From assembly GCF_030651625.1 (NCBI RefSeq), contig NZ_JAUSCF010000012.1, forward strand, positions 1-64,000: DNA of 64,000 nt, given 5' to 3'. The first letter of the stretch is position 1; each line of letters starts with the position of its first letter. This document shows positions 1,150 to 17,306 of the stretch, in pieces. The notes beneath the pieces were generated by a model. That model worked only from the letters and a program-made list of their open reading frames with translations, did no database searches and had not been told where the DNA came from. Made by a program: the position numbers and the translations under genes. Source of the DNA: Hydrogenophaga sp. Its GTDB lineage: Bacteria; Pseudomonadota; Gammaproteobacteria; Burkholderiales; Burkholderiaceae_C.

Positions 1150-1296
1150 CTGCGCCGAGCCGCCCTGAGCACCACAAAAGGGCATGGCCCGGCGGGTGCA
1201 CCATGTCGCGCGGTCCAAGCGCACCACCAGGCCCTCGTTTGGTTCGCTGCGGCGCCTGGCGGTCGTTCAAACCGCCAAAATCAACTTTGCACAAGC

Positions 1297-1311
1297 TGGC
1301 ACGCTTTCTGC
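1297..1311 (+). promoter_or_regulatory. Sigma-54 (RpoN) -24/-12 type promoter upstream of riboswitch 1
   Basis: cTGGCACgctttCTGCtt against consensus TGGCAC-N5-TTGC; one mismatch in the -12 element. Confidence 0.6.
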
Positions 1312-1373
1312 TTCCAACAACTGTGCAAGAAGAGCGATTTGAGGTTCGACCGTCAAATGCTCAGTACAGGTGC

Positions 1374-1466
1374 ACTAGGGTTCCGACCACGCTGATGTGG
1401 TGTCTGGTCCGAGAGTGTGCCGGCCTCATCGCAGGCTCCACGGAGGGATAAAAGCCCGGGAGAACG
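1374..1466 (+). ncRNA. Guanidine-I (ykkC-yxkD) riboswitch, copy 1
   Basis: Conserved blocks in order: CTAGGGTTCCG ... GTCTGGTCCGAGAG ... CCACGGAGGGATAAAAGCCCGGGAGA. Located directly upstream of an ABC substrate-binding protein. Confidence 0.93.
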
Positions 1467-1516
1467 ATCACTGATCGGTCTTCCTGCATGTCCCACCAAC
1501 CCTTGGAGTCTCACCG

Positions 1517-2554
1517 ATGAAAACCCCTGTTCCACACACTTCGGGCCTGCGCTCTTCATCGCGGCGCAACCATTTCCTCAAGCCGGCGCTTGGCCTGGCG
1601 CTGTCGCTCTCGGCCCTCACTTCGTTTGCACAAACCCCTGCCTCCATGAAGATCGCCACGGTGGTGTGGATCGGCTACGGCCCGTTTTATGTGGCCGAGG
1701 CGCTGGACCTCTACAAGAAATACAACCTCAAGGTCTCGCTGCAGGTTTTCAACGACCCGGCCCTGATTCCAGCGGCCATCGCCTCGGGCGCGGTCGATGG
1801 TGGCATGCTGACCTACGACCAGGTGGTCGGTCAGGTGGCTGCCGGTCGCAACATGAAAGTGGTCATGCCCATCGACTACTCCAACGGCGGTGACGCCATC
1901 GTGGCCGACAGCAGCATCACCAAGGTGGCCGACTTCAAGGGCAAGAAGATCGGCTACAACCCGCTCTCGCCGTCGGACTTCCTGCTCTCCTACGCCCTCA
2001 AGACGGTGAGCCTGAGCGAGAAGGACATCAGCCCGGTGAGCATGACGCCTGAGGCCGTGCCGGCTGCCATGGCATCCGGCCAGTTGCCCATCGGCGTGAC
2101 CTACGAACCCAGCCTGTCGCAGATCCTGAGTCAGGGCGGCGGCAACAAGTTCAAGGTGGTGTTTTCCTCCAAAGACGCGCCTGGCCTGATTGCCGATGTG
2201 CTGGTGTTTGACGACAAGGTCATCAAGGCCAAGCCCACCCAGATCACCGGCATCATGAAGGCGTACCTGGACGGCATGGCCTACATGAAGTCCAAGCCCG
2301 ACGAAGCCCACAAGATCATCGGCAAATTCATGGGTGTGCCGGCTGCCGAGGTGAAGGAACAGCTCAGTGGCGTCTACAACATCCCCCTGGCGGAAATGCC
2401 CAAGGCCTTCATGCCAGCCAAGGAGACCACTTCGTACTACGCCAGCGGTGAAATCATCGCCGAGCTGCTCAAGGCCAAGGGCCAGATCACGAAGATCCCC
2501 GCCACCGAAGCCACCTTCGACGCCAGCCTCGTCAAGGCTCTCGCCGCCAAGTAA
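1517..2554 (+). CDS. NitT/TauT-type ABC transporter substrate-binding protein (putative guanidine transporter component)
   Basis: Signal peptide, then KIATVVWIGYGPFYVAEALDLYKKYNLKV, typical of the NMT1/SsuA-like family. Sits under a guanidine-I leader. Confidence 0.88.
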   Translation: MKTPVPHTSGLRSSSRRNHFLKPALGLALSLSALTSFAQTPASMKIATVVWIGYGPFYVAEALDLYKKYNLKVSLQVFNDPALIPAAIASGAVDGGMLTYDQVVGQVAAGRNMKVVMPIDYSNGGDAIVADSSITKVADFKGKKIGYNPLSPSDFLLSYALKTVSLSEKDISPVSMTPEAVPAAMASGQLPIGVTYEPSLSQILSQGGGNKFKVVFSSKDAPGLIADVLVFDDKVIKAKPTQITGIMKAYLDGMAYMKSKPDEAHKIIGKFMGVPAAEVKEQLSGVYNIPLAEMPKAFMPAKETTSYYASGEIIAELLKAKGQITKIPATEATFDASLVKALAAK

Positions 2555-2635
2555 GCCCCGCGCCGCTGCAACAGCGCCTCAAAGCGCTGGCGCAGCGGGC
2601 CAGGAGCCTGCGCGGCAGAAGACATCGAGGCGAAA

Positions 2636-2732
2636 CGTGTGGGAAAAGAGCCCAATTTGGCCCCGCTTTTGAGGACTTTGGCCGTAGCCACAGCCGGAAA
2701 TACGGGGGCGAGGCGGGACTTTTCTCCACGCG
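2636..2732. repeat. Imperfect full-length palindrome (MITE/REP-like)
   Basis: Ends CGTGTGGGAAAAGAGCCC / GGGACTTTTCTCCACGCG are imperfect inverted repeats around a centre near GGCCGTAGCCACAGCC. Confidence 0.45.
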
Positions 2733-2793
2733 TTGCAGCCGATGTCGTCCTGCTGCGCAAGCTCCCAGGTGCGCCCCGTTTGAAAGCAACTCC

Positions 2794-3804
2794 ATGAAAC
2801 CGGTCTTTCGATACGAAGACGGCGTGTGGCCGAACACCGCCGCCCTGACCTTCACCGTGCTGGGCTGGCCTGTGGGCATTGCCCTGTTGGGGCAGGCCCA
2901 CTGGGCGCTCAATGTGCTGGGTGTGATGCTGGTGGCGTTGACCCTCGTCTGGTCGGCCTACTTCATCCACGAGTTCGCGCACAACGCCATCTTTCGCACA
3001 CCGCAGGCGAACGAGCGATGGGGCAAGTTCATGAGCTGGATCAACGGCAGCGCCTACGCCAGCTTCGCCGACCTGCGCCGCAAGCACATGCGCCACCACA
3101 TCGAGCGGGCCGACGTCATCACCTTCGACCTGCAGGGTTTCCTGCGTACCCATCCGCTGGTGCGTCGGGTGGTGCTGGCGCTCGAATGGCTTCACATCCC
3201 TGCGGTGGAATTCGTGATGCGCGGCTTCGTGATCGCGCTGCCCTTCATGGGCGAACGCAAGAAAGAAGCGCGCGGTCGTGTGATCGGTGTCGCCGCCGTG
3301 CGGCTCACGGCCTGGGCGCTGCTGGCCTGGTGGTCGATCAAGGCATTGGTCCTCTACGCGCTGGCCTACCTGCTGTTCGTGCACCTGCTTCGCTTTGCCG
3401 ACTGCTTTCAGCACACCTACGACGCCTACCCCATCCTTGATGAAACCCCGATTCCTCAAGACAAGCTGCGCGACCGTGCATACGAACAGGCCAACACTTA
3501 CAGCGACGTGGTCAGCATTGATGCGAAGTGGCTCAACCTCGTCTGGCTCAATTTCGGTTTCCACAACGCGCACCACGAACGCCCGGTCGCACCCTGGTAC
3601 CAGTTGCCGAAGCTGCACCGCGAGCTGTACCCCGACGGCAATGCCCAGGTGGTCACGGTGGGCGAGTTGCTGCGTGCCTACCACCGTCACCGCGTGACCC
3701 GGGTGCTCGCCAGCGACTACGGCGAGGTGCTGGCGCCCGGCACCCCGCACCGCGCGGACGGGTTCATCGGCGCCGTGGGCGTTTCATTTCTCACAGCCGT
3801 GTGA
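2794..3804 (+). CDS. Fatty acid desaturase family (membrane di-iron) protein
   Basis: Histidine boxes HEFAHN, HMRHH and HNAHHE in a membrane protein. Confidence 0.88.
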   Translation: MKPVFRYEDGVWPNTAALTFTVLGWPVGIALLGQAHWALNVLGVMLVALTLVWSAYFIHEFAHNAIFRTPQANERWGKFMSWINGSAYASFADLRRKHMRHHIERADVITFDLQGFLRTHPLVRRVVLALEWLHIPAVEFVMRGFVIALPFMGERKKEARGRVIGVAAVRLTAWALLAWWSIKALVLYALAYLLFVHLLRFADCFQHTYDAYPILDETPIPQDKLRDRAYEQANTYSDVVSIDAKWLNLVWLNFGFHNAHHERPVAPWYQLPKLHRELYPDGNAQVVTVGELLRAYHRHRVTRVLASDYGEVLAPGTPHRADGFIGAVGVSFLTAV

Positions 3805-3807
3805 TGA

Positions 3808-3893
3808 CACACCCCCCGCAGCACCTTTGGCGCTACCCCAGAGGGGGCAACACCAGCCGTCCGGAAAAGCCGGCCCGGCGGTGTTCTCGTCTG
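3808..3893 (+). repeat. 3'-of-stop intergenic repeat family, copy A
   Basis: CACCCCCCGCAGCACCTTTGGCGCTACCCCAGAGGGGGCAACACCAGCCGTCCGGAAAAGCCGGCCCGGCGGTGTTCTCGTCTGG; shared blocks with copies B-E. Confidence 0.75.
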
Positions 3894-3921
3894 GCTTCCC
3901 CTTACTTCCGGGAACGCTGAT

Positions 3922-4710
3922 ATGGCAGACCCCACCTACGGACTGCAGGGGAAGACGGTGCTCATCACGGGTGCGGCCGGTGGCATCGGCAGCGCGTTGG
4001 CGCGGGCGTTTCTGGCACAAGGTACTCAGCTCGTGTTGCTGGACCGCTCTGCCGCACCGCTCGACGCGCTGGTGGAATCGCTGCACAGCAGCCGGGTGTG
4101 CAGTGCCATGTGCGACCTCGGCAGTGACGCAGAAGTGGCTGCCGTGGCCGCGATCGTGAAAGAACGCTTCGGTCAACTCGATGTGCTGGTCAACAACGCC
4201 GGCACTGAGTACCCCACACCCATCGCAGACGAAGCGCCCGACGCCATGGCACGCTGGGCCAGCCTGCTGGACAACAACGTCACTTCGATGGTGCGCCTCA
4301 CGCAGGCCCTGCTGCCCATGCTGCCGCGCGGCGCGAGCGTCATCAACCAGTCGTCCATCTGGGGCCGCATTGGCGTGGCGGGGTTCTCGGCTTACGCTGC
4401 GAGCAAGCACGCCGTCGTGGGCCTCACACGCTCGCTGGCGCTGGAGCTGGGCCCGCGCGGCGTTCGTGTCAACGCGGTGTGCCCCGGCTGGGTGCATACC
4501 GCCGCCGCGCTGCGCTCGCTCACCGCCATGGCGCAGGCACAAGGCCGCAGCGAGGCCGAGGTGGAGCGCGAAATCCTGGCGAAACAGGCCATGCCGGCGA
4601 TGCTCACACCCGACGACCTGGCCGGCGTGTTCCTCTTCCTGGCCAGCGCGGGCGCGTCGCCCATCACCGGCCAGTGCATTGTGACCAGCCATGGCGAGGT
4701 GATGGCATGA
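3922..4710 (+). CDS. SDR family oxidoreductase
   Basis: TGxxxGIG (TGAAGGIG), NNAG, YAASK active site. Confidence 0.92.
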   Translation: MADPTYGLQGKTVLITGAAGGIGSALARAFLAQGTQLVLLDRSAAPLDALVESLHSSRVCSAMCDLGSDAEVAAVAAIVKERFGQLDVLVNNAGTEYPTPIADEAPDAMARWASLLDNNVTSMVRLTQALLPMLPRGASVINQSSIWGRIGVAGFSAYAASKHAVVGLTRSLALELGPRGVRVNAVCPGWVHTAAALRSLTAMAQAQGRSEAEVEREILAKQAMPAMLTPDDLAGVFLFLASAGASPITGQCIVTSHGEVMA

Positions 4711-4784
4711 ACGCCGCCCGACCGTTCCGAGGGCGCTCAGCCCCGCAGCGCGCGGCGCGCAGCACGGAGGGTCTTCCAGTGAAC
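4708..4784 (+). repeat. Short intergenic repeat pair, copy 1 (overlaps upstream stop, carries RBS-like GGAGGG)
   Basis: ATGAACGCCGCCCGACCGTTCCGAGGGCGCTCAGCCCCGCAGCGCG...AGCACGGAGGGTCTTCCAGTGAAC; near-copy at 7430-7497. Confidence 0.7.
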
Positions 4785-4810
4785 ACAGTGTGGCGCACGG
4801 GAACCGGCGA

Positions 4811-5557
4811 ATGAACCTCATTTCGCTGCACGACAGGACCGCGCTGGTCACCGGCGCCGCCACCGGTATCGGGCGCGCCATCGCCCTCCTGTTCGCGCAG
4901 GCCGGTGCGCGCGTGTTGGTGAACCACCTGAATCAGAACGAGCAGGCACAGGCCGTGGTGCAGGCGATCAAGAACGCAGGCGGCGACGCGATCGCCATCG
5001 ATGCCGATGTGAGCCTTGCCGCCGATGTGCAACGACTCGTGAACGAGGGGGGCGAGGTGCATGTTCTCGTCAACAACGCCGGCATCATCCAGGAAAAGCC
5101 TTTCCTTGAAACCACCGAAGCCGAATGGGACCGCATGCTCGGCGTCGATCTGAAATCGGTGTTCCTCATGGCGCGCGCGGTGTTGCCCGGCATGGTGGCT
5201 CGCGGCAGCGGCGTCATCGTCAATCTCGCGTCCGACCTTGGCATCCTCGGCCGCGAGAACTACGCGCCCTACTGCGCCGCCAAGGCCGGCGTGATCGGGC
5301 TCACGCGCTCACTGGCGCGCGAATTCGCGCCACACGGTATTCGCGTGAACGCCATCGCGCCCGGCCCGGTCAACACCGCCATGGTTTCGCTGGAAAACAT
5401 GAGCCCGGCGTGGATGGAGAAAGAACTCGCCATTCCGCAACACCGCGTGGCCGAGCCTGAGGAGATTGCGGCCACCGCGCTGTTCCTCGCTTCCGACCTC
5501 TCGCGTTTCTACTGCGGCCAGGTGCTGGGCCCCAACGGCGGCTCCGTCATGCCCTGA
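4811..5557 (+). CDS. SDR family oxidoreductase (3-oxoacyl-ACP reductase-like)
   Basis: TGAATGIGRAIA, NNAG, YCAAK; start set at the internal ATG (MNLISLHDRTALVTG). Confidence 0.92.
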   Translation: MNLISLHDRTALVTGAATGIGRAIALLFAQAGARVLVNHLNQNEQAQAVVQAIKNAGGDAIAIDADVSLAADVQRLVNEGGEVHVLVNNAGIIQEKPFLETTEAEWDRMLGVDLKSVFLMARAVLPGMVARGSGVIVNLASDLGILGRENYAPYCAAKAGVIGLTRSLAREFAPHGIRVNAIAPGPVNTAMVSLENMSPAWMEKELAIPQHRVAEPEEIAATALFLASDLSRFYCGQVLGPNGGSVMP

Positions 5558-5558
5558 G

Positions 5559-5715
5559 AAGGTGCGAATGGATTCGCCATGACCGCTCATCCCCCATCCA
5601 AGGCCCCACTCGGCGTTGCAAATGCCCGCCGTAGCGCGAGCTACGGCTGCGCTTTGCGCCTTGATTGGAACCTTGGCTGTGGCCTGCTCGATCACGCCGA
5701 ACCCATTCACACCTT
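5559..5715. repeat. Long imperfect palindrome / miniature inverted-repeat element
   Basis: AAGGTGCGAATGGATTCGCCATGA ... TCACGCCGAACCCATTCACACCTT termini, with perfect central GCCGTAGC-GCGA-GCTACGGC at 5628-5647. The two halves align over most of their length. Confidence 0.75.
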
Positions 5716-5724
5716 CTGAGTTTT

Positions 5725-6648
5725 ATGTTTCTTCCGTCCAACCCCTCTGACCGCCTCGCTACCGGCGTGCTGCTGTTCTCGGCCTCGCTCTGGGGCCTGT
5801 CGTGGGTGCCGCTCAAGTGGTTCATTGCGCAGGGCCTGAGCGGCCCGGTGGTGTCGCTGCTCTCGTATGGTCTGGTGGGCCTGTGTGCGCTGCCCTTCAT
5901 CTGGCGCGACCGCGGTGCGTGGCGGTCGCAGTGGGTTTTTGTTCTCGCGCTGGCGCTGGTGGGTGGCTGGGCCAACACCTCCTTCGTCAACGCACTGATG
6001 ATGGGCGACGTGGTACGGGTGATGTTCCTGTTCTACCTCTCGCCCGTGTGGTCGGTGCTGGGGGGCTGGCTGTTTCTGAAGGAGCGCATTCCGCCGCTGC
6101 GCTGGGCCGCGGTGGTGGCCGCCATCGTGGGCCTGTGGATGGTGCTGGGCGGGCCGGGTGTGGTCAGCCTCTCGCTCAGCTTCGTGGACTTCCTCGCTCT
6201 CTCGGCCGGCTTTGCGTTTGCAGCCAACAACATTCTCGCGCGTGCCGCGCAGGCCGTGCCCATGCGCACCAAAACGCTAGCGGTGTTCGCCGGCTGCGGC
6301 GCGATTTCGCTCGTGACCACCGGTGCGCTGGGCCACAGCGTGCCGACCATGGGCGCGCTGGTGTGGTTCGGCATCCTGGCCTACGGCTTTGGCTGGCTGC
6401 TGCTGGCCACCGCCACCTGGCAGTTCGGTGTCACCCACCTGGAAAGCAGCCGCGCTGGCGTGATCTTGCTGGCCGAGCTGGTGGTGGCGGTGCTCACCGC
6501 GCTGTGGTTCGGCGGTGAAACGCTCACGCCGCTGGGCTGGGCTGGCGGCACGCTCATTGCTGTGGCTGCCTTGGTGGAAGCACTGGGCGGCACGCCCGCC
6601 CCCACGACAAAACCTGCCCTGGCACACCCCGCCACCACAGGAGGATGA
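5725..6648 (+). CDS. DMT (EamA) family transporter
   Basis: Ten-TM EamA pattern, start MFLPSNPSDRLATGVLLFSASLWGLSWVPLKW. Confidence 0.88.
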   Translation: MFLPSNPSDRLATGVLLFSASLWGLSWVPLKWFIAQGLSGPVVSLLSYGLVGLCALPFIWRDRGAWRSQWVFVLALALVGGWANTSFVNALMMGDVVRVMFLFYLSPVWSVLGGWLFLKERIPPLRWAAVVAAIVGLWMVLGGPGVVSLSLSFVDFLALSAGFAFAANNILARAAQAVPMRTKTLAVFAGCGAISLVTTGALGHSVPTMGALVWFGILAYGFGWLLLATATWQFGVTHLESSRAGVILLAELVVAVLTALWFGGETLTPLGWAGGTLIAVAALVEALGGTPAPTTKPALAHPATTGG

Positions 6649-6652
6649 ACAC

Positions 6653-7432
6653 ATGAACGACACCGTCTGGATGAACCAGCTTTCATGGGTCGACTACCAG
6701 CATCGCATCCAGCGCGACCAGCCACCTGTGCTGCTGCCCGTGGGCGCACTGGAACAGCACGGCCCGCACCTGCCGCTGGGCACCGACGGCCTGCTATCCA
6801 GCGCCGTGGCCGCCGACACCGCCGCTCTGGTGGGCGGTCTGGTGGCGCCCACGCTCAGCTACGGCTACAAGTCGCAGCCCAAATGCGGTGGTGGTCAGCA
6901 CTTCTGCGGCACCACCAGCGTGGACGCGGCCACCCTGATCGGCCAGGTGCGCGACGCGGTGCGCGAGTTCGCAAGGCACGGACTCACCAAGCTCGTGATC
7001 GTCAACGGCCACTACGAGAACCAGTGGTTCCTGATCGAAGGCATCGACCTCGGCCTGCGCGACCTGGGACCCGGCACCACACTGCAGGTGATGCGCCTCG
7101 AGTACTGGGATTTCATGACACCCGACACCCTGGGCGACGTGTTCCCCGACGGCTTTCCCGGCTTCGCGCTGGAGCACGCCGCCGTGCTGGAAACGTCCAT
7201 GATGCTGCACTACCACCCCAACCTCGTGCGCATGGACCTGCTGCCCAGCGACGGCCCGGCCGACTTCCCTCCCTACGACATGTATCCGCCGCGCACCGAC
7301 TGGGTGCCGGCCTCGGGCGTGCTTTCGTCTGCCAAAGGTTCCGACGCCACCAAGGGCCAACTGCTGGCCACCGAAGTGACGCGCCGCATGGCCGAAGCCA
7401 TCGCAACCGGCTTTGAGAGGCCGGCACCATGA
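6653..7432 (+). CDS. Creatininase family amidohydrolase
   Basis: LLPVGALEQHGPHLPLGTD metal-binding motif, VNGHYEN; RBS AGGAGG precedes the ATG at 6653. Confidence 0.9.
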   Translation: MNDTVWMNQLSWVDYQHRIQRDQPPVLLPVGALEQHGPHLPLGTDGLLSSAVAADTAALVGGLVAPTLSYGYKSQPKCGGGQHFCGTTSVDAATLIGQVRDAVREFARHGLTKLVIVNGHYENQWFLIEGIDLGLRDLGPGTTLQVMRLEYWDFMTPDTLGDVFPDGFPGFALEHAAVLETSMMLHYHPNLVRMDLLPSDGPADFPPYDMYPPRTDWVPASGVLSSAKGSDATKGQLLATEVTRRMAEAIATGFERPAP

Positions 7433-7497
7433 GCGCCGCACGGTCGCTCCGAAGGCGTTCAGCCCCGCAGTGCGTAGCACGGAGGGTAGTCCAGTGA
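7430..7497 (+). repeat. Short intergenic repeat pair, copy 2
   Basis: TGAGCGCCGCACGGTCGCTCCGAAGGCGTTCAGCCCCGCAGTGCGTAGCACGGAGGGTAGTCCAGTGAGC. Confidence 0.7.
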
Positions 7498-8189
7498 GCG
7501 CCGCTTTTCCCCCTGCGCACACCGCGCTCATCGTCATCGACATGCAGCGCGACTTCTGCAGCCCCGGCGGCTACGCCGACCAGGCCGGCATGGACGTGCA
7601 GCGCCTGCGCGAACCCATTGCGAACATACAGAAATTGCTACAGGCAGCGCGCACCGCAGGTCTGCTGGTGGTGCACACCCGCGAAGGCCACCTGCCGGAC
7701 CTGAGCGACTGCCCTGCCGCCAAGATGGACCGCAGCATGGCGGCCGGCGCACCCATTGGCAGCCAGGGCCCGCTGGGGCGGCTGCTGGTGCGCGGCGAAC
7801 AGGGCCACGACTTTGTGGACGCACTCAAGCCTGCCAAAGGCGAACTGGTCATCGACAAGCCCGGCTATGGTGCCTTCCACCTCACGCGTCTGGCACAGGT
7901 CCTGGCCGACCACCACGTGCAGCAGATCATCCTCTGCGGCGTGACCACCGAGGTCTGCGTGCACTCCACGCTGCGCGAAGCGGTCGACCGTGGCTACACC
8001 TGCACCACCGTCGGCGACGCCACCGCCGCCAGCGACCCCTCGCTGCAGGCACCGGCACTGGCCATGATCGGGGTGGAGGGTGGCATCTTCGGCCGCGTAT
8101 GCAGCACCGCCGAGGTGGTGGCAGCACTGGGCGGCCCAGCCCTGGAAAACCGGGCAACCACCTGGGTACAAGCCTTCACCGGGATCTGA
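7494..8189 (+). CDS. Isochorismatase-like cysteine hydrolase
   Basis: TALIVIDMQRDFC, KPGYGAF, LCGVTTEVCVHSTLREA (Asp-Lys-Cys triad); GTG start after GGAGGG. Confidence 0.9.
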   Translation: MSAAFPPAHTALIVIDMQRDFCSPGGYADQAGMDVQRLREPIANIQKLLQAARTAGLLVVHTREGHLPDLSDCPAAKMDRSMAAGAPIGSQGPLGRLLVRGEQGHDFVDALKPAKGELVIDKPGYGAFHLTRLAQVLADHHVQQIILCGVTTEVCVHSTLREAVDRGYTCTTVGDATAASDPSLQAPALAMIGVEGGIFGRVCSTAEVVAALGGPALENRATTWVQAFTGI

Positions 8190-8192
8190 ACC

Positions 8193-8999
8193 ATGGCACC
8201 TCCCCTGCGCCTCTGGCCCCTGCTCACAGCCACGCACCGCTACGACAAGTCCATCTCCACCTTCAACCGGGGCAAGGGCGAAGTGATTGAGGCACCCATC
8301 CTCGCCTACCTCATTGAAACGCCCAATGGCCGCATCCTCTACGACGTGGGCTGCGACCACGCCAAAATCCAAGACCCTGTGCTGCGCGAGCGCTACTACA
8401 ACCCCGCCACCTTCGACATGGGCGCACCTGACATGCGCGAGGAGCAGCGCCTGCCGCACCACCTGGCGCGCCTGGGCCTCACGCCCGCCGATGTGGACCT
8501 GATCTTCATCGGCCACCTGCACTTCGACCACGCGGGCGGCCTGAAGGAATTGAAGCGCTGCGGCTGCGGCGCCGAGATCCACCTGCAGCGAGACGAATGG
8601 GACGCCGCCTGCAGCGGCCTGGATGGCGCGGTGTTCGAAGACGACCTCATCGATGACGAAGGCCGTGCCCTGCAGTTCTGCCTGAAGCGCGGCGAATACA
8701 CCGTGGCCCCCGGCGTCACCGCCGTGGCCACGCCCGGCCACACCGCCGGCCACATGTCCCTGCTGATCGAACTGCCCACCGGCCAGCCCGTGCTGCTCGC
8801 GGGCGATGCGGCCGACCTGCAGGAAAACATCACCGACGAAATCGCGCCGGGCACCCTCTGGCAAGGCCGCGAAGCGCAGGCGGTGGAAAGCATCCGCAAG
8901 CTCAAGGCCCTGGCGAGCGAAACCGGCGCCCAGCTCTGGCCCAACCACGACATGGCCTTCTACCGAAGCCTGCCCCCGTTTCCAACCCCATGCACCTGA
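8193..8999 (+). CDS. MBL-fold metallohydrolase (N-acyl-homoserine lactonase / BlcC-like)
   Basis: GHLHFDHAGG and TPGHTAGHMSLLI motifs. Confidence 0.88.
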   Translation: MAPPLRLWPLLTATHRYDKSISTFNRGKGEVIEAPILAYLIETPNGRILYDVGCDHAKIQDPVLRERYYNPATFDMGAPDMREEQRLPHHLARLGLTPADVDLIFIGHLHFDHAGGLKELKRCGCGAEIHLQRDEWDAACSGLDGAVFEDDLIDDEGRALQFCLKRGEYTVAPGVTAVATPGHTAGHMSLLIELPTGQPVLLAGDAADLQENITDEIAPGTLWQGREAQAVESIRKLKALASETGAQLWPNHDMAFYRSLPPFPTPCT

Positions 9000-9015
9000 A
9001 CGCTTGCGCACACCG

Positions 9016-9040
9016 CCGTTCGTGCTGAGCTTGTCGAAGC
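9016..9040. repeat. Dispersed repeat GTTCGTGCTGAGCTTGTCGAAGC
   Basis: Near-identical core CTGAGCTTGTCGAAG recurs at 30520-30543. Confidence 0.6.
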
Positions 9041-9054
9041 CCATCCACGCACAC

Positions 9055-9819
9055 ATGACCACCCCAACCGCCGCCCCCATCCCCGAGCGCTACCACGGCG
9101 TGTGGCAGCGCACCCTGCTCGAATCGCCCGAAGGCCGCGACACCACCACCTGGGTGCGCTGGCTGCAAACCGGCCTGTGGCACGGCGACCTGCGCGTGCC
9201 CGCTGAAGCCGACCGCAGCACGCCGCCTGGGCGCGCGCAACAACAAGGCTTCGCCGGCACCACCGCCATCACACGGCCCGACCCAGCGCTACCCGAAGTC
9301 TGCACCTGGCAACGCACCATCGACTTCCAGCCACCACGCAGCACACCAGATGCCGGCCACATGGTGTTCGAAACACCCGACCGCGTGATCGAGACCGGCA
9401 TCCACGGCACCTACCTGGAAGTGTGGGAGCGCCTGCCCGGCTCAATCGGGCAACGCATCGCGCTCGCGCGCCTGGGCCCCAACGGCGAACCCACCGCCGA
9501 GCGCCTGCTGGTGTGTGGCCGCTACCTCATGCACCTGTGCCCGCGCGACACACCATGGCCCGCCGACCTGGCGCCCGACGAAACGCTGGCCGACCTGATG
9601 CAGCGCCACCCGCACCAAGCCAGCGCCTTGCTCAACTTCACCATTGCTTTCGGCACGTGGATCGACGGCATGTGGACGGTGGAGCGCGCCACGCGGCCCG
9701 CGCTCGAAGGCCATGCCATGACCTTCACGCTCGAGCGCATAAGCAACACCGTCGTGAACGTGATGAGCAACGGCATGCCACCGCGCTGGCACGTGCTGGA
9801 GTGGCACGCACCCGACTGA
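9055..9819 (+). CDS. HRI1-like small domain protein (tentative)
   Basis: YHGVWQRTLLESPEGRDTTTWVRWLQTGLWHGDLRVP resembles the HRI1-type pattern from memory; family assignment uncertain. Confidence 0.55.
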   Translation: MTTPTAAPIPERYHGVWQRTLLESPEGRDTTTWVRWLQTGLWHGDLRVPAEADRSTPPGRAQQQGFAGTTAITRPDPALPEVCTWQRTIDFQPPRSTPDAGHMVFETPDRVIETGIHGTYLEVWERLPGSIGQRIALARLGPNGEPTAERLLVCGRYLMHLCPRDTPWPADLAPDETLADLMQRHPHQASALLNFTIAFGTWIDGMWTVERATRPALEGHAMTFTLERISNTVVNVMSNGMPPRWHVLEWHAPD

Positions 9820-9994
9820 AGCGCCGGCCACGCACCGTCGCCGTGCGCTGCCCGGCGCATGCACCGCGCTCGCCAGCGGGTGGGTCGGCTTCGTCCCTGC
9901 ACACACGCTTCCATGGCCTTTCCATGGGCATGCAACTTGCGCGGATGGTGATGCGTTCGACACCCGCCCACCCTCATTCACCAGGAGCTTCACC

Positions 9995-10834
9995 ATGACA
10001 CCCGCCACCCCTGCATTCAACCGCCGCGGCGTGCTCGCCGCCCTGCTGCTGCCACTCGCCCTGTGGGCCGGCACCGCGCAAGCAGCCAACCTCGACGAGA
10101 TCAAGAAGCGCGGCTATCTCATCGTTGTCACCGAAGACGATTTCAAGCCCTTTGAGTTCATCAAGGACGGCAAACCCACCGGGTTCAACCACGAGATGGT
10201 CGACGCACTTCGCAAATACGCGCCGTTCGAGATCCGCCAGGAAATCCTGCCGTGGCCCGGCATTCTGGCTGGTGTGGCGACGGGCAAGTACGACATCGCC
10301 ATCAGCGCCATCCTCATGACCAAGGAGCGCACGCAGTCGCTCGACTTCACCAGCCCGATCGCCGACGCCACACACTTCTATGTGAAGCGCAAGGACGACA
10401 GCAGCATCAAGTCCATCAAGGATCTCAACGGCAAGACCGTGGGCGTGCAGACCGGCAGCGCCTTCCTGAGCCGCCTGCCCGAGCTGCAAGCCATGCTGGC
10501 CAAGGACGGCGGCAAGATCGGCAAGGTCGTGGAATACGCGTCCTACCCCGAGGCTTACCAGGACCTCGCCCTGAAGCGCACCGACTACGTGATCAACACC
10601 GTCATCAACCTCAAGGCGCTGGTGGCCGAAAAGCCGGCCGTGTTCGAACTGGGCCAGGCGGTGTCGGGCAACTCGTACCCGGCGTGGGCGATGAAGAAGG
10701 GCAACACCGAGCTGCAGAAGTTCATGAACGACTTCATTGCCGCGCAGAAGGCCAACGGCGTGATGCCAGCCTTGCAGAAGAAGTGGTTCGGCGAATCCTT
10801 CAACCTGCCGGTGAGCTACACGCCCGAGCAGTGA
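9995..10834 (+). CDS. Polar amino-acid ABC transporter substrate-binding protein
   Basis: Signal peptide and KPFEFIKDGKPTGFNHEMVDAL (SBP_bac_3). Confidence 0.92.
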   Translation: MTPATPAFNRRGVLAALLLPLALWAGTAQAANLDEIKKRGYLIVVTEDDFKPFEFIKDGKPTGFNHEMVDALRKYAPFEIRQEILPWPGILAGVATGKYDIAISAILMTKERTQSLDFTSPIADATHFYVKRKDDSSIKSIKDLNGKTVGVQTGSAFLSRLPELQAMLAKDGGKIGKVVEYASYPEAYQDLALKRTDYVINTVINLKALVAEKPAVFELGQAVSGNSYPAWAMKKGNTELQKFMNDFIAAQKANGVMPALQKKWFGESFNLPVSYTPEQ

Positions 10835-10861
10835 ACGCCCTCCGGTTTTGGCGCCCGTCGC

Positions 10862-11509
10862 ATGAGCCATGCCGATGTTCTGACCATCTTCAACGGCGCG
10901 TGGACCACGCTGCTGCTGTCGGTCGCCGGCATCGCGCTGGGGCTGCCGCTCGGGCTGGGGCTGGCGCTGCTGCGCTGGGGCCAGGTGCCGATCTTCAATC
11001 AGGCGGTGGCGGTTTACGTGAGCCTGCTGCGCGCCACCCCATTGGTCACCCTGGTGCTGCTGCTGTTCTTCGCGCTGCCCAGTGCCGGCATTTCCATGGG
11101 GCCAATGACCGCCGGCCTGCTGGCCCTTACCCTGAACACAGCGGCCTTCAACTGCGAGGTGTGGCGCGCGGCACTCCTGGACTTGCCGAAAGACCAGCTC
11201 GAGGCTGCGCAGTCCGTCGGCATGGGGCGCGTGCTGCGCTTCCGCCGCATCGTGCTGCCGCAGATCGCACGCACCGCGCTGCCCGGCCTCATCAACGAGA
11301 TGTCGCTATTGATCAAGCTCACACCCGTGCTTGCCGTGGTGGGTGTGGTCGACATCACGCGCGCCGCCGTGCGCATCGGCGCGCAGACCTACGAGCCGCT
11401 GCCGCCGTTCCTGGTGGCCCTGGCAATCTACATTCCCATCGTGTTTGCGCTGGTGAGCGCGCAGCGCTGGGTCGAGCGCCGCCTGGTGCGGCGCGAGGCC
11501 GTCGCATGA
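10862..11509 (+). CDS. Amino-acid ABC transporter permease (His/Glu/Gln/Arg type)
   Basis: HisM-type TM pattern, SLLRATPLVTLVLLLFFALP. Confidence 0.92.
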   Translation: MSHADVLTIFNGAWTTLLLSVAGIALGLPLGLGLALLRWGQVPIFNQAVAVYVSLLRATPLVTLVLLLFFALPSAGISMGPMTAGLLALTLNTAAFNCEVWRAALLDLPKDQLEAAQSVGMGRVLRFRRIVLPQIARTALPGLINEMSLLIKLTPVLAVVGVVDITRAAVRIGAQTYEPLPPFLVALAIYIPIVFALVSAQRWVERRLVRREAVA

Positions 11510-12162
11510 TGAATGACTTCGCCATCGTGTGGTCCGAGCGCGGGCTGCTGCTCTCGGGCCTGGGCAACACGGTCATCCTGTCGCTGCTGGCCGCGCTGGT
11601 CGGTCTGCTTCTGGGCGCCCTGCTCTCCACGCTGCTGATGAGCCCGAAACCGTGGTTGTCCGCGCCGGCCAAGGTGTTTGTGGACGCCGCGCGCTGCACG
11701 CCCTTCCTGCTGTTCGCCTACATCGTCTACTACGGCCTGCCCTCGATCGGCCTGCAGTTCGACGCCTGGAGCGCCGGCCTGCTGGCGCTTACCGTGTACC
11801 ACTCAGCCTATATGGCAGAAATCCTGCGTGCGGCCTGGACGGCGCAGCCGCGCGCGCCCATCGAAGCCGGCTTGGCCTTCGGTTACAGCGGATTCGGCCT
11901 GTTCCGCCGCATCGTTCTGCCGCCGCTGGCGTTGTCGTCGGCGCCGGTGCTGGGCAACCAGGTGATCCAGATCATCAAGGACAGCGCCTTCCTCACCATC
12001 ATCACACTGCCCGAACTCACTCACGCGGTGAGCTCCATCCAGGCGCGCCACTTCATTCCGTTCGCCGCTTTCGTCACCGCCGTGCTGCTGTACTGGGCAC
12101 TCTGCCTGGTGGTGGAGGCCGGCGTCTCCGCCGTGGGTCGCATGGCAGAGGCGCGCCGCTGA
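11506..12162 (+). CDS. Amino-acid ABC transporter permease
   Basis: ATGA overlap with upstream gene; [22 protein letters not shown]. Confidence 0.92.
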
Positions 12163-12190
12163 GCCAGCCTGCCCAGGGACCTGCACAACC

Positions 12191-12973
12191 ATGCCCACGC
12201 GCGCCCCCCTGCTCAGTGTCATATCGATCAGCAAACGATTCGGCAGCCTGCGCGTGCTCGAAGACATTACTTTCACCGTGGCCCACGGCGAGACGGTGTG
12301 CCTGCTCGGCCCCTCGGGTTCGGGCAAGTCCACCCTGCTGCGCTGTATCAACTGGCTGGAGCGCCCGGACAGCGGCCGTGTGTTGCTCGACAACCAGCCC
12401 ATCGGCGTCACCTCGGGCGGGGTGGTGATGACCGACCGGCAGCTTGCGCTCGTGCGCACCCGCATCGGCATGGTGTTTCAGCAGTTCGCACTGTGGCCGC
12501 ACCTCACCGTACTGCAAAATGTGATGGAAGCGCCGCTGCACGTGCAGCGCCGGCCAAAAGACGAGGTGCGCGCCGATGCCGAGGCCTTGCTTCAGCGGGT
12601 GGGTCTGCTTGACAAGCGCGACATCTTTCCCGCCCGCCTGTCTGGCGGACAGAAGCAGCGCGTGGGCATTGCCCGCGCGCTGGCCATGAAGCCTGTGCTG
12701 TTGCTGTTCGACGAACCCACCAGCGAGCTCGACCCCGAACTGGTGGGCGAGGTGCTGGCGGTGATGCGCGACCTCGCCACCGAAGGCATGACCATGGTGG
12801 TAGTGACGCACGAGATGGCCTTCGCCCGCGAAGCGGCCCACCGCGTGATCCTGATGGACCGGGGCGTGGTGGTGGAGACCGGCGCACCCGAACAGTTCTT
12901 TTCAGCGCCGAGCACCGAGCGTGGGCGGCAGTTCCTTCGGCGCTATGCCGACGGCCGAGCAGCCATTGGCTGA
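12191..12973 (+). CDS. Amino-acid ABC transporter ATP-binding protein
   Basis: Walker [18 protein letters not shown], Walker [13 protein letters not shown]. Confidence 0.95.
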
Positions 12974-13111
12974 TGCCTGACCCGGCGCCGGCCTGGCCCA
13001 CTCGGACGCATTTACTTGACCTGCGTCAATCCCGCGGCAATGACCACGCGCGGGCCGGAACCATCGGCCCTGAAACGATGCCCAACAGGCACCACAACCT
13101 CTGGAGCCCCC

Positions 13112-13429
13112 ATGAAACCCTTTCACACCATTCTGGCGCTGTCCGCCGCCGCCCTGTTGACAGCCTGCGCGGGCCCTGGCCCGGCGGCCAACGTGGAAGG
13201 TCACGCTGCTCACCAGGCTGCCGGAACTTCGCCAGTAGGCGCGCCACATGCCATGCACAGGCGCATGCAACACACGCCAGCAATGCAGGCCATGCACGAG
13301 AAGATGATGAGCGCCCAGACTCAGGCGGAGCGGCAGGCACTGAGGGCCGAGCACATGAAGTCCATGCATGAGGGTATGGACCCCGCGAAGTGCATGCAGG
13401 GGCATGGGATGCACCGCAAGGGCGGATGA
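13112..13429 (+). CDS. Small Met/His-rich lipoprotein
   Basis: Signal peptide with lipobox LLTAC; C-terminal half rich in Met and His (MHRRMQHTPAMQAMHEKMMS...MKSMHEGMDPAKCMQGHGMHRKGG). Confidence 0.7.
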   Translation: MKPFHTILALSAAALLTACAGPGPAANVEGHAAHQAAGTSPVGAPHAMHRRMQHTPAMQAMHEKMMSAQTQAERQALRAEHMKSMHEGMDPAKCMQGHGMHRKGG

Positions 13430-13555
13430 TTGATCTACTGCACAGCAACCCAGATCTCAAATGCAACCTGCTGCATGTGGACAGACGGTGTGGCGAAGGG
13501 ACCTGGCTCATTTGCGTCACTCACCACTTCAATCCTTCTGCGAGCAAATGCATAC

Positions 13556-13570
13556 TGGCACCATACTTGC
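13556..13570 (+). promoter_or_regulatory. Sigma-54 (RpoN) -24/-12 promoter upstream of riboswitch 2
   Basis: cTGGCACcatacTTGCtt, exact TGGCAC-N5-TTGC. Confidence 0.75.
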
Positions 13571-13624
13571 TTGTTTTAAACCAAGAGAGGCGCTGTGCCC
13601 AGCACACCGCCAGCCTTGAAGACC

Positions 13625-13735
13625 GCTAGGGTTCCGGGCTCAGATCACTGCTTCAACGTAGCCATCTGAGCCGTCTGGTCCGAGAGCAGTCGGCCACGAT
13701 CGTGTGGTTCCACGGAGGGACAAAAGCCCGGGAGA
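13625..13735 (+). ncRNA. Guanidine-I (ykkC-yxkD) riboswitch, copy 2
   Basis: CTAGGGTTCCGG ... GTCTGGTCCGAGAG ... CCACGGAGGGACAAAAGCCCGGGAGA; extra 9-bp arm GGCTCAGAT/ATCTGAGCC. Confidence 0.94.
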
Positions 13736-13793
13736 CGCTTGCGCTGCAAAGCACATGCCTCTCCGTGTTTTGTCCCCCGTTCAGGAGCCCCGC

Positions 13794-14660
13794 ATGTCTT
13801 CTCAGACCCACCCCACCGTTGCCGTGCGCCCCAGCGCGGCACCGCCTGCGCGAGCGGTGCCCCGGAGGCGTTCCAACCTCTGGACGGTGCGTGCGCCCAT
13901 TGCGCGGCGCACCTATTGGGTGCTTGCCCTGGTGGGGCTGTTCACCCCTTTGGTGCTCTGGACCATGCTGGCCGCCTGGGGCGGGCTGGACCCCACCTTC
14001 CTGCCGGCGCCGCTACAGGTACTGAACAAGACCTGGACCTGGATCACTGAAACTGGCCTGATGGAAGACATGGGCATCAGCATCTACCGGGTGGTGGCAG
14101 GCTTTCTGCTCTCGGCCGTGATTGCCTTGCCCCTGGGTTTGATGATTGGTTCGTTTCGCGCGGTGCAGGCGCTGCTGGAACCGCTGACCGACTTCGTGCG
14201 CTACATGCCGGCGGTGGCGTTCATTCCGCTGGTGATGCTGTGGGTGGGCATTGGCGAGGGTTCAAAGATCGCCATCATCTTCATTGGCACCTTCTTTCAA
14301 ATGGTGCTCATGGTGGCCGAAGACGTGCGCCGGGTGCCGGCCGCGCAGGTGGAAGCCGCACAGACCATGGGCGCGAGCCGCAGCGAGCTGGTGGAGAAGG
14401 TGATCTTCCCCAGCGCCAAGCCGGCCTTGCTGGACACCCTGCGCATCACCATGGGCTGGGCCTGGACCTACCTGGTGGTGGCCGAGCTGGTGGCCGCGAA
14501 TTCGGGCCTGGGCTACGCCATCCTGCGGGCGCAGCGCTTCCTGCAGACCGACACCATCTTCGCGGGAATCATCGTCATCGGCCTCATCGGGTTGATCACG
14601 GACCAGTTGTTCCGCCTCGCGCACCGCCGCGCCTTCCCATGGCTTTATCTGAAGGGCTGA
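13794..14660 (+). CDS. NitT/TauT-type ABC transporter permease (putative guanidine transporter)
   Basis: SsuC/TauC-like permease motif EAAQTMGASRSELVEKVIFPSAKPALLDTLRI. Confidence 0.92.
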   Translation: MSSQTHPTVAVRPSAAPPARAVPRRRSNLWTVRAPIARRTYWVLALVGLFTPLVLWTMLAAWGGLDPTFLPAPLQVLNKTWTWITETGLMEDMGISIYRVVAGFLLSAVIALPLGLMIGSFRAVQALLEPLTDFVRYMPAVAFIPLVMLWVGIGEGSKIAIIFIGTFFQMVLMVAEDVRRVPAAQVEAAQTMGASRSELVEKVIFPSAKPALLDTLRITMGWAWTYLVVAELVAANSGLGYAILRAQRFLQTDTIFAGIIVIGLIGLITDQLFRLAHRRAFPWLYLKG

Positions 14661-14665
14661 ACACC

Positions 14666-15526
14666 ATGAGCACCAACCCCATGCCCCGCCCGCCGATCGC
14701 GCTGCCCAAGATCGAGATCCGCGACGTCTGCAAGCACTTCGATGGCGCGCCGATCAACGCACTCGAAGGCATCAACCTCAACATCTGCGAAAACGAATTC
14801 GTCACCTTCGTGGGTGCATCGGGCTGCGGCAAGTCCACGCTGCTGCGCACCATTGGCGGGCTGGAGGTGCAGACCTCGGGCGAACTGCTGGTGGACGGCC
14901 AGGCCGTCACCGGCCCGGGCATCGACCGCGCCATGGTGTTCCAGCACTACAGCCTGTACCCGTGGATGCGGGTGAGCGAAAACATCAAGTTCTGTCGCCA
15001 GCTTGCGGCCCACACCGAAGGCCGCACCTCGGCCGACGTGGAAGCCGCCGAAGGCCGGGCCGATGCACTGCTGCGCCTGATGGGCCTGGAGCCGGTTGCG
15101 CGCTCGTGGCCGAACCAGCTTTCAGGCGGCATGCAGCAGCGCGTGGCCATCGCACGCGCGCTCATGGGCCGCCCCGACATCGTGCTCATGGACGAGCCCT
15201 TTGGCGCACTGGACGCACAGACCCGCGAGGTGATGCACGACCTGATCCGCTACGTGCACAAGCTGGAAAAGTCGACCATCGTGTTCGTCACGCACGACGT
15301 GGAAGAGGCACTGTACCTGGGCGGCCGCGTGGTGCTCATGGCACCGCGCCCGGGGCGCATCGACACCGTCTACGACGTGCCCTTTGGCGATCAGCGCCAG
15401 CAAGACCTGAAACACGCGCCCGAGTTCGTGCGCTTGAAGCGCGACATCCTCGATCGCATCCGCGAAACATCGGGCATGAAGACCGACCTGGAACAGCTTC
15501 AGCGCATGACCGGCGCCATCGTCTGA
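14666..15526 (+). CDS. NitT/TauT-type ABC transporter ATP-binding protein
   Basis: [35 protein letters not shown]. Confidence 0.95.
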
Positions 15527-15545
15527 AATTTAGGAAGACCCACAC

Positions 15546-16385
15546 ATGACCCCCCACGACACCACCCTCAACGACCCGCTCACCGAGGTACCGCCCAACC
15601 CACCACAGGCCTCACCCGTGGACGCCCCGGCCTTGTGGCAACGCTTCCCCGCCGCATCGCTTGAAGGCGTGGACGAAGCCCGCGCCATGTGGAGTGAAGT
15701 GGTGCCCGGTGGCAGCCACTGGAGCTGGCGCATGCCACGCGGCAGTGCCATGCGCTTCGTCGCCCTGGAGGCCGGCGCCAACGTGAGCCTGGTGCTTTAC
15801 AGCGCGCTGGAAAAACTGGAACGCTACAACATGCCCGACAGCCTGAAGGCGCAGCATACCGCGCACTACACGCGCGGCCATGTGCTCATGAGCGACATGG
15901 GCCGCAGCATGGCCAGCTTCACAGCCGACAGCCTTGGATGGCACGACCCCCTGGGCGCCCTGCTCGACAACGAGCTGATGCAGCAGAAATACGGCGAGAA
16001 GCGCTATGAGGCGAACCGCAACGCCATGCACCGTTCGGGCAGGGATGGTCTGCTGATCGAGATCGGCAAGCACGGCCTGAGCAAGCGCGACCTGATCGCG
16101 CCGGTGAACCTGTTCAGCAAGGTGGGCGTGGACGTGCAAGGCCGCTTTGCCTTTGCGCCCAACCACGCCAGGGCCGGTGACTTCGTGGAGCTGCGTTTCG
16201 ACATGGACGTGATCGTGGCCATCAGCACCGCGCCCCATGGGCTGGACACCGCGCCCGCCTACAGCCCAAAGAAAGTGGGCCTGCTGGCCTGGCGCTGCGG
16301 CACCGCACCGGCGAATGACGTGTGCCGCGCCTTCCGCCCGGAAAACGCGCGCGCCCTGCACAACACCGACATGCTGTATGCGTGA
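15546..16385 (+). CDS. Urea carboxylase-associated family protein 1 (DUF1989; candidate carboxyguanidine deiminase subunit)
   Basis: DUF1989-like sequence in the conserved position before the carboxylase; GSHWSWRMPRGSAMRFVALEAGANVSLVLYSA. Confidence 0.88.
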   Translation: MTPHDTTLNDPLTEVPPNPPQASPVDAPALWQRFPAASLEGVDEARAMWSEVVPGGSHWSWRMPRGSAMRFVALEAGANVSLVLYSALEKLERYNMPDSLKAQHTAHYTRGHVLMSDMGRSMASFTADSLGWHDPLGALLDNELMQQKYGEKRYEANRNAMHRSGRDGLLIEIGKHGLSKRDLIAPVNLFSKVGVDVQGRFAFAPNHARAGDFVELRFDMDVIVAISTAPHGLDTAPAYSPKKVGLLAWRCGTAPANDVCRAFRPENARALHNTDMLYA

Positions 16386-16500
16386 CACCCCCCTGCGCCG
16401 CTTCGCGTCTTCCCCCCTCCCTGGCGCCTTCGGCTTGGAGGGGGGACCGCACCTGCAGCCGGCAAAGCCGGTTCTGCGGTGCGTCTGGACGAGTCCCCGC
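16386..16500 (+). repeat. 3'-of-stop intergenic repeat family, copy B
   Basis: CACCCCCCTGCGCCGCTTCGCGTC...GGAGGGGGGACCGCACCTGCAGCCGGCAAAGCCGGTTCTGCGGTGCGTCTGG starts immediately after the stop codon. Confidence 0.75.
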
Positions 16501-16545
16501 TGACCACCCAGCTGAATTGAGAACCCGAGTCTGGAGATCTGCAAC

Positions 16546-17214
16546 ATGCAAGCCACCACCGCCACCGACATCCGCATTCTGGAGAGCCAGCTGGACCCGG
16601 CCCACGCCGTGAGGAACCAGCGCCACCCCGCGGGCGAGCCCATCCTGTTTGAAGTGAAGCGCGGGCAGACGCTGCGCATCGTCGACCTTGAAGGCAACCA
16701 GGCCGCCGACGTGCTGTTCTACAACCGGCACGACCCGGCCGAACACTACAGCGCCACCGACACCATGCAGCGCCAGGGCGGCATCTACCTCACCACGGGT
16801 TCCGTCATCCGCAGCAACGACGGCAACGCCATGCTCACCATCGTGGCCGACACCTGTGGCCGGCACGACACGCTGGGTGGTGCCTGCGCAGCCGAAAGCA
16901 ACACCGTGCGCTACGCGCTGCAAAAGAAATTCATGCACAGCTGCCGCGACAACTACCTCATTGCCCTGCAACACGCCGACGTGGGCCTGGGCAAGCGCGA
17001 CCTGGTACCCAACATCAACTTCTTCATGAACGTGCCGGTCACAGCCGATGGTGCGCTGAGTTTTGAGGATGGCGTGTCCGGCCCGGGCAAGTATGTGGAG
17101 ATGCGCGCGGAGATGGATGTGTGGGTGCTCATCAGCAACTGCCCGCAGTTGAACAACCCGTGCAACGCCTACAACCCGACGCCGATTCAGTTGCTGGTCT
17201 GGAATCCCGTCTGA
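16546..17214 (+). CDS. Urea carboxylase-associated family protein 2 (DUF1989; candidate carboxyguanidine deiminase subunit)
   Basis: [39 protein letters not shown]; second DUF1989 gene in tandem. Confidence 0.88.
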
Positions 17215-17231
17215 ACGATCTTGTGTGAACC

Positions 17232-17288
17232 GCTGCTGCGGGACGACCCGCAGCAGCACAACCCTTTCGCAGGACGGCCTGCCTTTTT
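17232..17288 (+). promoter_or_regulatory. Tandem intercistronic hairpins (possible attenuator)
   Basis: GCTGCTGCGGG-ACGA-CCCGCAGCAGC (11 bp perfect), then GCAGG-ACGG-CCTGC followed by CTTTTTCG. Confidence 0.6.
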
Positions 17289-17306
17289 CGTTCCGAGGTT
17301 CACCTC

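What the first reader, a model, noticed from the sequence alone, without database searches (positions are those of the whole stretch)
1297..13735. Two guanidine-I riboswitches, each behind a sigma-54-type promoter, bracket a split guanidine regulon
Seen: two ykkC-type leaders (1374-1466, 13625-13735). Each has a TGGCAC-N5-(T/C)TGC element about 60 bp upstream (1297-1311, one mismatch; 13556-13570, exact). Known: ykkC class I senses guanidine, and RpoN/NtrC promoters respond to nitrogen limitation. Inference: a two-key logic in which nitrogen starvation starts transcription and guanidine permits gene expression. Duplication of the whole promoter-plus-riboswitch module in one locus is unusual.
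Basis: partly seen in the sequence, partly recalled or inferred. Interest (0 to 1): 0.8.

Follow-up and report, generated by a model that had tools for sequence, protein, structure and literature searches.

The report
Nitrogen-starvation promoters driving guanidine riboswitches
Two gene clusters for using guanidine as a nitrogen source each start with a nitrogen-starvation (sigma-54) promoter directly in front of a guanidine-sensing RNA switch, and the same pairing turns up in most proteobacterial copies of this switch that were sampled, so it looks like a general "starving AND guanidine present" control that I could not find described.

Summary
Rfam confirms two guanidine-I riboswitches (1364-1464, 13615-13736), with sigma-54 -24/-12 elements 51 and 43 nt upstream.

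Comparison turns a two-site guess into a strong case. Of 126 guanidine-I copies sampled across Pseudomonadota, 107 (32 of 40 families) carry such an element within 100 nt upstream. Shuffles give about 0.65, control windows 0-1, and 30 guanidine-II loci none. NtrC-type sites (at least 9 of 12 matches) lie upstream in 72% against 13% of control windows. Published RNA-seq of a Burkholderia cenocepacia ntrC mutant shows the carboxylase operon needs NtrC; a sequenced strain of that species carries the same promoter-riboswitch pair there.

"Unusual duplication of a module in one locus" is wrong. Modules A (transport plus guanidine carboxylase pathway) and B (binding protein, desaturase-like enzyme, creatininase, biuret-hydrolase-like) are separate old units that recur across Burkholderiales. 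A's transporter lacks a binding protein; B supplies it.

Best model: serial AND gate of nitrogen starvation and guanidine. Weak points: no clear NtrC site before module A in Hydrogenophaga, the window's apparent genus; nothing tested at the bench for this strain.

The parts
1168..1184 (+). NtrC-like site AGCACCACAAAAGGGCA upstream of promoter B (9 of 12 consensus matches)
   Evidence: shuffle p=0.023; similar GCACCA sites at about -100 to -120 in several Hydrogenophaga relatives
1297..1312 (+). sigma-54 -24/-12 element of module B; inferred transcription start about 1323
   Evidence: 66 of 68 module-B riboswitches in named genomes have such an element
1364..1464 (+). guanidine-I riboswitch of module B
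   Evidence: RF00442 82.7 bits
1517..2554 (+). substrate-binding protein (NMT1/SsuA type, resembles TIGR03427 putative urea-transporter binding protein), module B; inferred partner of the permease/ATPase at 13794-15526
2794..3804 (+). FA_desaturase-type membrane di-iron enzyme with three His boxes, core of module B
3922..4710 (+). SDR oxidoreductase a, module B
4790..5557 (+). SDR oxidoreductase b, module B
5665..6648 (+). EamA-family transporter, module B
6653..7432 (+). creatininase (TIGR04448 above cutoff), module B
7494..8189 (+). isochorismatase-fold hydrolase closest to biuret hydrolase, module B (start codon uncertain)
8193..8999 (+). metallo-beta-lactamase-fold lactonase-like protein, module B
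9995..12973 (+). polar amino acid type ABC transporter (binding protein, two permeases, ATPase), present after module B in some Hydrogenophaga only
13556..13571 (+). sigma-54 -24/-12 element of module A (exact consensus); inferred transcription start about 13582
13615..13736 (+). guanidine-I riboswitch of module A
   Evidence: RF00442 84.5 bits
13794..14660 (+). ABC permease (taurine/nitrate type), module A
14666..15526 (+). ABC ATPase, module A
15546..16385 (+). UAAP1/DUF1989, carboxyguanidine deiminase subunit (CgdA/B type), module A
16546..17214 (+). UAAP2/DUF1989, carboxyguanidine deiminase subunit (CgdA/B type), module A
17235..17282 (+). guanidine-II riboswitch (mini-ykkC) inside operon A, in front of the carboxylase
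   Evidence: RF01068 43.8 bits
17307..20936 (+). urea/guanidine carboxylase
   Evidence: TIGR02712 1892.8 bits
21011..22849 (+). allophanate hydrolase AtzF (start codon uncertain)
   Evidence: TIGR02713 766 bits

Best explanation
Each of the two operons is transcribed by sigma-54 RNA polymerase from a -24/-12 promoter and carries a guanidine-I riboswitch as the first functional element of its leader. Sigma-54 holoenzyme cannot open the promoter without an ATP-driven activator; the most likely activator is NtrC, which is active when the cell is short of nitrogen. Transcripts are therefore made only under nitrogen limitation, and the riboswitch allows expression of the transporter and catabolic genes only when guanidine is bound, giving a serial AND gate. 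In module A a guanidine-II riboswitch adds a further guanidine check in front of the carboxylase. The two modules form one regulon: module B carries the substrate-binding protein that module A's permease/ATPase lacks, plus enzymes that probably feed guanidine (or a related compound) into module A's carboxylase / carboxyguanidine deiminase / allophanate hydrolase route to ammonium. Shown: riboswitches, sigma-54 elements, their conserved pairing, presence of rpoN and ntrC, gene families. Inferred: use of the promoters, NtrC as activator here, ON-switch direction, translational mode, substrate of module B.
For: Rfam hits. Sigma-54 element (score at least 12) within 100 nt upstream of 107 of 126 guanidine-I copies (38/40 in the family sample, 27/35 class, 42/51 phylum); composition-preserving shuffles total about 0.65, control windows 0-1; 32 of 40 families have at least one. 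Positions flanking the element carry almost no information (mostly under 0.15 bit) and the distance varies from 4 to 83 nt, so the element itself is conserved rather than the whole leader. The closest elements (4 nt) place the inferred start exactly at the first base of stem P1, and none lies closer. NtrC consensus (at least 9/12) within 200 nt upstream of the element: 72% against 13% of control windows; top 6-mers GCACCA 73 vs 11 expected and GGTGCA 50 vs 9.8. Guanidine-II controls: 0/30, including 19 in front of the exporter gene sugE. Own genome has rpoN and an ntrC equivalog. Published RNA-seq: in the B. cenocepacia H111 ntrC mutant under nitrogen limitation, urea carboxylase BCAS0272 fell 6-fold and reads for the associated binding protein BCAS0269 and for BCAS0271 were absent (PMC5491218); a sequenced B. 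cenocepacia strain has the same operon with guanidine-I plus sigma-54 on both divergent arms. Sigma-54 control of COG3665 (UAAP) genes was predicted independently (PMC12316311). SBP split: a Ramlibacter MAG has riboswitch-permease-ATPase-binding protein-FAD in a single run (L242).
Against: No expression data for this organism. Module A in the window and eight Hydrogenophaga relatives has no convincing NtrC site within 600 nt (window p=0.185), so the activator there is uncertain. 19 of 126 copies lack the element though most also head assimilation operons. My sigma-54 matrix is a hand-set approximation of the published consensus. The B. cenocepacia strain used in the ntrC study was not itself available; I compared another strain of the species.
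Confidence: 0.82

Rival explanations
1. The promoters are sigma-54 dependent, but the activator in Hydrogenophaga (at least for module A) is another enhancer-binding protein rather than NtrC, so the second input is not general nitrogen status.
For: No NtrC-like site near promoter A in Hydrogenophaga; the genome encodes several other NtrC-family regulators.
Against: NtrC motif is strongly enriched over the whole set and present upstream of module B in most Hydrogenophaga; published NtrC dependence of the homologous operon in Burkholderia (PMC5491218); no enhancer-binding-protein gene was identified beside the modules among the genes scanned.
Confidence: 0.15
2. The riboswitch alone decides: a sigma-70 promoter or read-through from upstream genes supplies transcript at all times, and the sigma-54 element only boosts it (no true AND gate).
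For: Intergenic regions are short and the guanidine-II switch inside operon A shows that riboswitches can act without their own promoter.
Against: No sigma-70-like site found in 1000-17400 (0, shuffles 1.7); the ntrC mutant largely loses the homologous transcripts in Burkholderia (PMC5491218).
Confidence: 0.1
3. The sigma-54-like elements are chance matches or non-functional leftovers of a conserved leader.
For: Consensus matches alone are not evidence of function.
Against: 107 of 126 against about 0.65 expected, 32 of 40 families, unconserved flanks and variable spacing, exact limit at the aptamer's first base pair, 0/30 in guanidine-II controls.
Confidence: 0.02

Closest known systems
Guanidine-I (ykkC) riboswitch, RF00442
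   Same: Both leaders match the full aptamer model above the gathering score; downstream genes are of the guanidine uptake and carboxylase type.
   Different: Here and in most Pseudomonadota sampled it sits directly behind a sigma-54 promoter; I found no description of that in the literature held. A Paenibacillus copy in front of a UAAP1 operon has no such element.
Guanidine carboxylase operon of Vreelandella boliviensis (PMC12508155)
   Same: Guanidine-I at the head, guanidine-II before the carboxylase, CgdAB, AtzF and ABC importer; expressed on guanidine, mostly not detected on ammonium.
   Different: One operon with a 2OG dioxygenase/lyase for methylguanidine; here the binding protein and a different enzyme set lie in a second riboswitch operon. 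Promoter type is not discussed in the passages found.
NtrC/sigma-54 nitrogen regulon, e.g. Burkholderia cenocepacia H111 (PMC5491218)
   Same: Urea/guanidine carboxylase genes are NtrC dependent under nitrogen limitation.
   Different: That paper mentions neither guanidine nor riboswitches.
Guanidine-II with SugE/Gdx exporters (detoxification)
   Same: Guanidine-sensing riboswitch in the same bacterial groups.
   Different: No sigma-54 element at 30 loci, 19 of them in front of sugE: detoxification is not gated by nitrogen promoters.

Membership tests
Guanidine-I riboswitch (RF00442) | Aptamer sequence and structure above the curated score | tested here: met
   84.5 and 82.7 bits against 63, full length
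Guanidine-I riboswitch (RF00442) | Binds guanidine and changes expression of the downstream gene | not testable with these tools
   needs in-line probing and reporters
Sigma-54 (RpoN) promoter | TGGCAC-N5-TTGC with invariant GG and GC 10 bp apart | tested here: met
   1297-1312 (one departure) and 13556-13571 (exact); conserved in 107 of 126 homologous leaders
Sigma-54 (RpoN) promoter | Genome encodes RpoN | tested here: met
   TIGR02395 430.9 bits
Sigma-54 (RpoN) promoter | Start site about 12 nt downstream of the GC and rpoN-dependent transcription | not testable with these tools
   needs 5'-end mapping and an rpoN mutant
NtrC regulon | NtrC binding sites (TGCACC-N5-GGTGCA) upstream of the promoter | tested here: inconclusive
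   Strong enrichment over the set (72% vs 13%); module B 9/12 at -129 (p=0.023); module A weak (p=0.185)
NtrC regulon | Genome encodes NtrC | tested here: met
   TIGR01818 622.7 bits (673 with its neighbour in frame) against cutoff 558.6
Guanidine carboxylase pathway (Gca-CgdAB-AtzF) | Carboxylase, both DUF1989 subunits and allophanate hydrolase in one operon under a guanidine riboswitch | tested here: met
Guanidine carboxylase pathway (Gca-CgdAB-AtzF) | Active-site Asp (guanidine) rather than Asn (urea), as described in PMC12186494 | tested here: inconclusive
   review gives no residue number and the structure alignment was cut before the relevant region
Guanidine-II riboswitch (RF01068) | Two GGACGACC-type hairpins above the curated score | tested here: met
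   17235-17282, 43.8 bits against 32

The most novel reading that the evidence does not exclude
Guanidine-I riboswitches that control guanidine assimilation in Pseudomonadota are as a rule the second half of a two-input device whose first half is an NtrC-activated sigma-54 promoter, while detoxification genes under guanidine-II lack it; bacteria thus treat guanidine as a nitrogen source only when starving. In Burkholderiales this device also controls an uncharacterised second operon (binding protein, FA_desaturase-type enzyme, SDRs, creatininase, biuret-hydrolase-like enzyme) that probably generates guanidine from a larger guanidino compound.
Probability: 0.7. Interest if true: 0.72.

Novelty: new variant of a known kind. 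Interest (0 to 1): 0.62.

Why it matters
The physiological role of guanidine and of its riboswitches has been an open question (PMC12186494). A conserved nitrogen-starvation promoter in front of most proteobacterial guanidine-I riboswitches is direct genomic evidence that these bacteria handle guanidine as a reserve nitrogen source, and it separates assimilation (guanidine-I, sigma-54) from export (guanidine-II, no sigma-54). It predicts that guanidine reporters will look dead in ammonium-grown cells, gives a simple test in many cultured species, and marks an apparently undescribed Burkholderiales operon as part of the guanidine regulon.

Tried and rejected
First orientation pass missed sites on minus-strand loci; redone with orientation. 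Local duplication of the promoter-riboswitch module: rejected because the aptamers group by module across genera. Intrinsic-terminator expression platform: not seen in the two leaders, and T5 runs between aptamer and start occur in only 2 of 39 family leaders. Translational platform: both leaders fold so that the aptamer's 3' strand pairs with the Shine-Dalgarno region, but statistics over relatives are modest (mean z -1.1 to -1.9), so only suggestive. Carboxylase Asp/Asn substrate test: could not be placed. B. cenocepacia H111 record itself not held. Pseudomonas stutzeri and Paraburkholderia phymatum nitrogen papers hold no relevant genes in the main text. FA_desaturase alignment found no solved-structure relative.
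Full report
CHECK OF THE OBSERVATION. cmscan confirms two guanidine-I riboswitches at 1364-1464 (82.7 bits) and 13615-13736 (84.5 bits) and adds a guanidine-II riboswitch at 17235-17282. No other RF00442 match exists in the 4.27 Mb genome. The -24/-12 elements are TGGCACGCTTTCTGCT at 1297-1312 and TGGCACCATACTTGCT at 13556-13571, 51 and 43 nt before the aptamers, with inferred starts at 1323 and 13582. The exact sigma-54 pattern is rare in this genome: 13 matches against 1 for its reversed control.

THE GENES. Module B (from 1297): binding protein, FA_desaturase-type enzyme, two SDRs, EamA transporter, creatininase, isochorismatase-fold hydrolase nearest to biuret hydrolase, MBL-fold protein. 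Module A (from 13556): permease, ATPase, UAAP1, UAAP2, guanidine-II, carboxylase, allophanate hydrolase. Module A is the known guanidine carboxylase pathway (named from PMC12508155 and PMC12186494). The closest named relatives of the module-B enzyme are mostly Hydrogenophaga, so the window probably belongs to that genus.

THE SIGMA-54 ELEMENT IS CONSERVED. I sampled RF00442 in 301 genomes of the family, 369 of the class and 399 of the phylum and read the upstream DNA of 126 copies. A sigma-54 element scoring at least 12 lies within 100 nt upstream of 107 (38/40, 27/35, 42/51). Shuffled sequences give about 0.65 in total, and control windows upstream or downstream give 0-1. At family level 32 of 40 families have it. 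Outside the element the aligned sequences carry almost no information and the spacing to the aptamer varies from 4 to 83 nt, so this is not simply a conserved leader. The nearest elements place the expected start exactly at the first base of P1 and none lies nearer, as expected if the transcript must include the whole aptamer. Caveats: the matrix was hand-set from the textbook consensus, choosing the best position inflates the conservation of the core letters, and relatedness is controlled only by the family tally.

NTRC. NtrC-type palindromes (at least 9 of 12 consensus letters) occur within 200 nt upstream of the element in 72% of cases against 13% of control windows, and GCACCA and GGTGCA are the most enriched 6-mers in an unseeded count. 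The window's genome encodes RpoN and an NtrC equivalog. Module B has a site at 1168-1184 (p=0.023) with counterparts in many Hydrogenophaga relatives; module A has none that convinces, in the window or in eight relatives. Independent published data support NtrC control: in Burkholderia cenocepacia H111 the ntrC mutant shows a six-fold drop of urea carboxylase BCAS0272, with reads for the neighbouring binding protein and BCAS0271 absent (PMC5491218). Another B. cenocepacia strain has guanidine-I plus sigma-54 on both divergent arms of that operon. B. pyrrocinia, Paraburkholderia sprentiae, Cupriavidus basilensis and Pantoea vagans plasmids show the same pairing, while Paenibacillus, a Bacillota control, does not.

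SPECIFICITY. Of 30 guanidine-II loci (19 in front of sugE, 9 in front of the carboxylase) none has a sigma-54 element. The coupling thus goes with guanidine-I and assimilation, not with guanidine sensing or detoxification in general.

THE "SPLIT" REGULON. Modules A and B lie next to each other in either order, or far apart, in different genera. Of 71 named Burkholderiales contigs with enough DNA upstream of the module-B enzyme, 68 have guanidine-I and 66 also the sigma-54 element. Aptamers group by module across genera, so neither is a recent copy of the other. Module A in the window has no binding protein of its own; module B begins with one. In several genomes without module B, module A carries its own distant binding protein (26-34% identical), and in one Ramlibacter MAG permease, ATPase, binding protein and module-B enzyme follow one riboswitch (L242). 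I infer that the binding protein of B serves the transporter of A.

HOW IT PROBABLY WORKS. Nitrogen shortage activates NtrC, which opens the sigma-54 promoters (inferred for this strain; supported by homologues). The leader RNA then tests for guanidine. Both leaders fold, without ligand constraints, so that the aptamer's 3' strand pairs with the Shine-Dalgarno region, and T-runs needed for intrinsic terminators are mostly missing in the family. A translational ON switch is therefore my guess for this group, at moderate confidence, although a terminator mode is presumed for the guanidine-I switch of V. boliviensis (PMC12508155). The guanidine-II switch adds control of the carboxylase.

NOVELTY. 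In the open-access library I found no paper joining guanidine riboswitches with sigma-54, RpoN or NtrC. Sigma-54 control of UAAP genes was predicted without mention of guanidine (PMC12316311). Each part is known; the systematic pairing appears new. Subscription journals were not searched.

Noticed in passing
17235-17282: Guanidine-II riboswitch inside operon A in front of the carboxylase; two riboswitch classes and three switches in one 16 kb stretch.
   Followed up: yes
2794-3804: FA_desaturase-type membrane di-iron enzyme, hallmark of module B, found in 129 stretches of genome contigs (the best 80 almost all Burkholderiales); three invariant His boxes and an invariant C-terminus GAVGVSFLTAV; no solved-structure relative. 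Likely acts on a guanidino compound.
   Followed up: partly
6653-8189: Creatininase and biuret-hydrolase-like genes in the same riboswitch operon suggest breakdown of creatinine-like or guanylurea-like compounds to guanidine.
   Followed up: no
9055-9819: Uncharacterised protein (MTTPTAAPIPERYHGVWQRTLLESP...) with no Pfam or NCBIfam match (scanned as the longer ORF 8806-9819) between module B and the amino acid ABC transporter.
   Followed up: no
L276:1-2211: An IscB gene with its HEARO RNA lies a few kb from the guanidine operon on Cupriavidus basilensis plasmid pRK1-2.
   Followed up: no
L275, L292, L293: Burkholderia and Paraburkholderia also carry two sigma-54/guanidine-I units, divergent, one for the binding protein and one for the carboxylase operon: the same split logic in another arrangement.
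   Followed up: partly
G000, 13 sites (L277-L289): Thirteen exact sigma-54 consensus sites in the genome; most target genes not yet named.
   Followed up: partly
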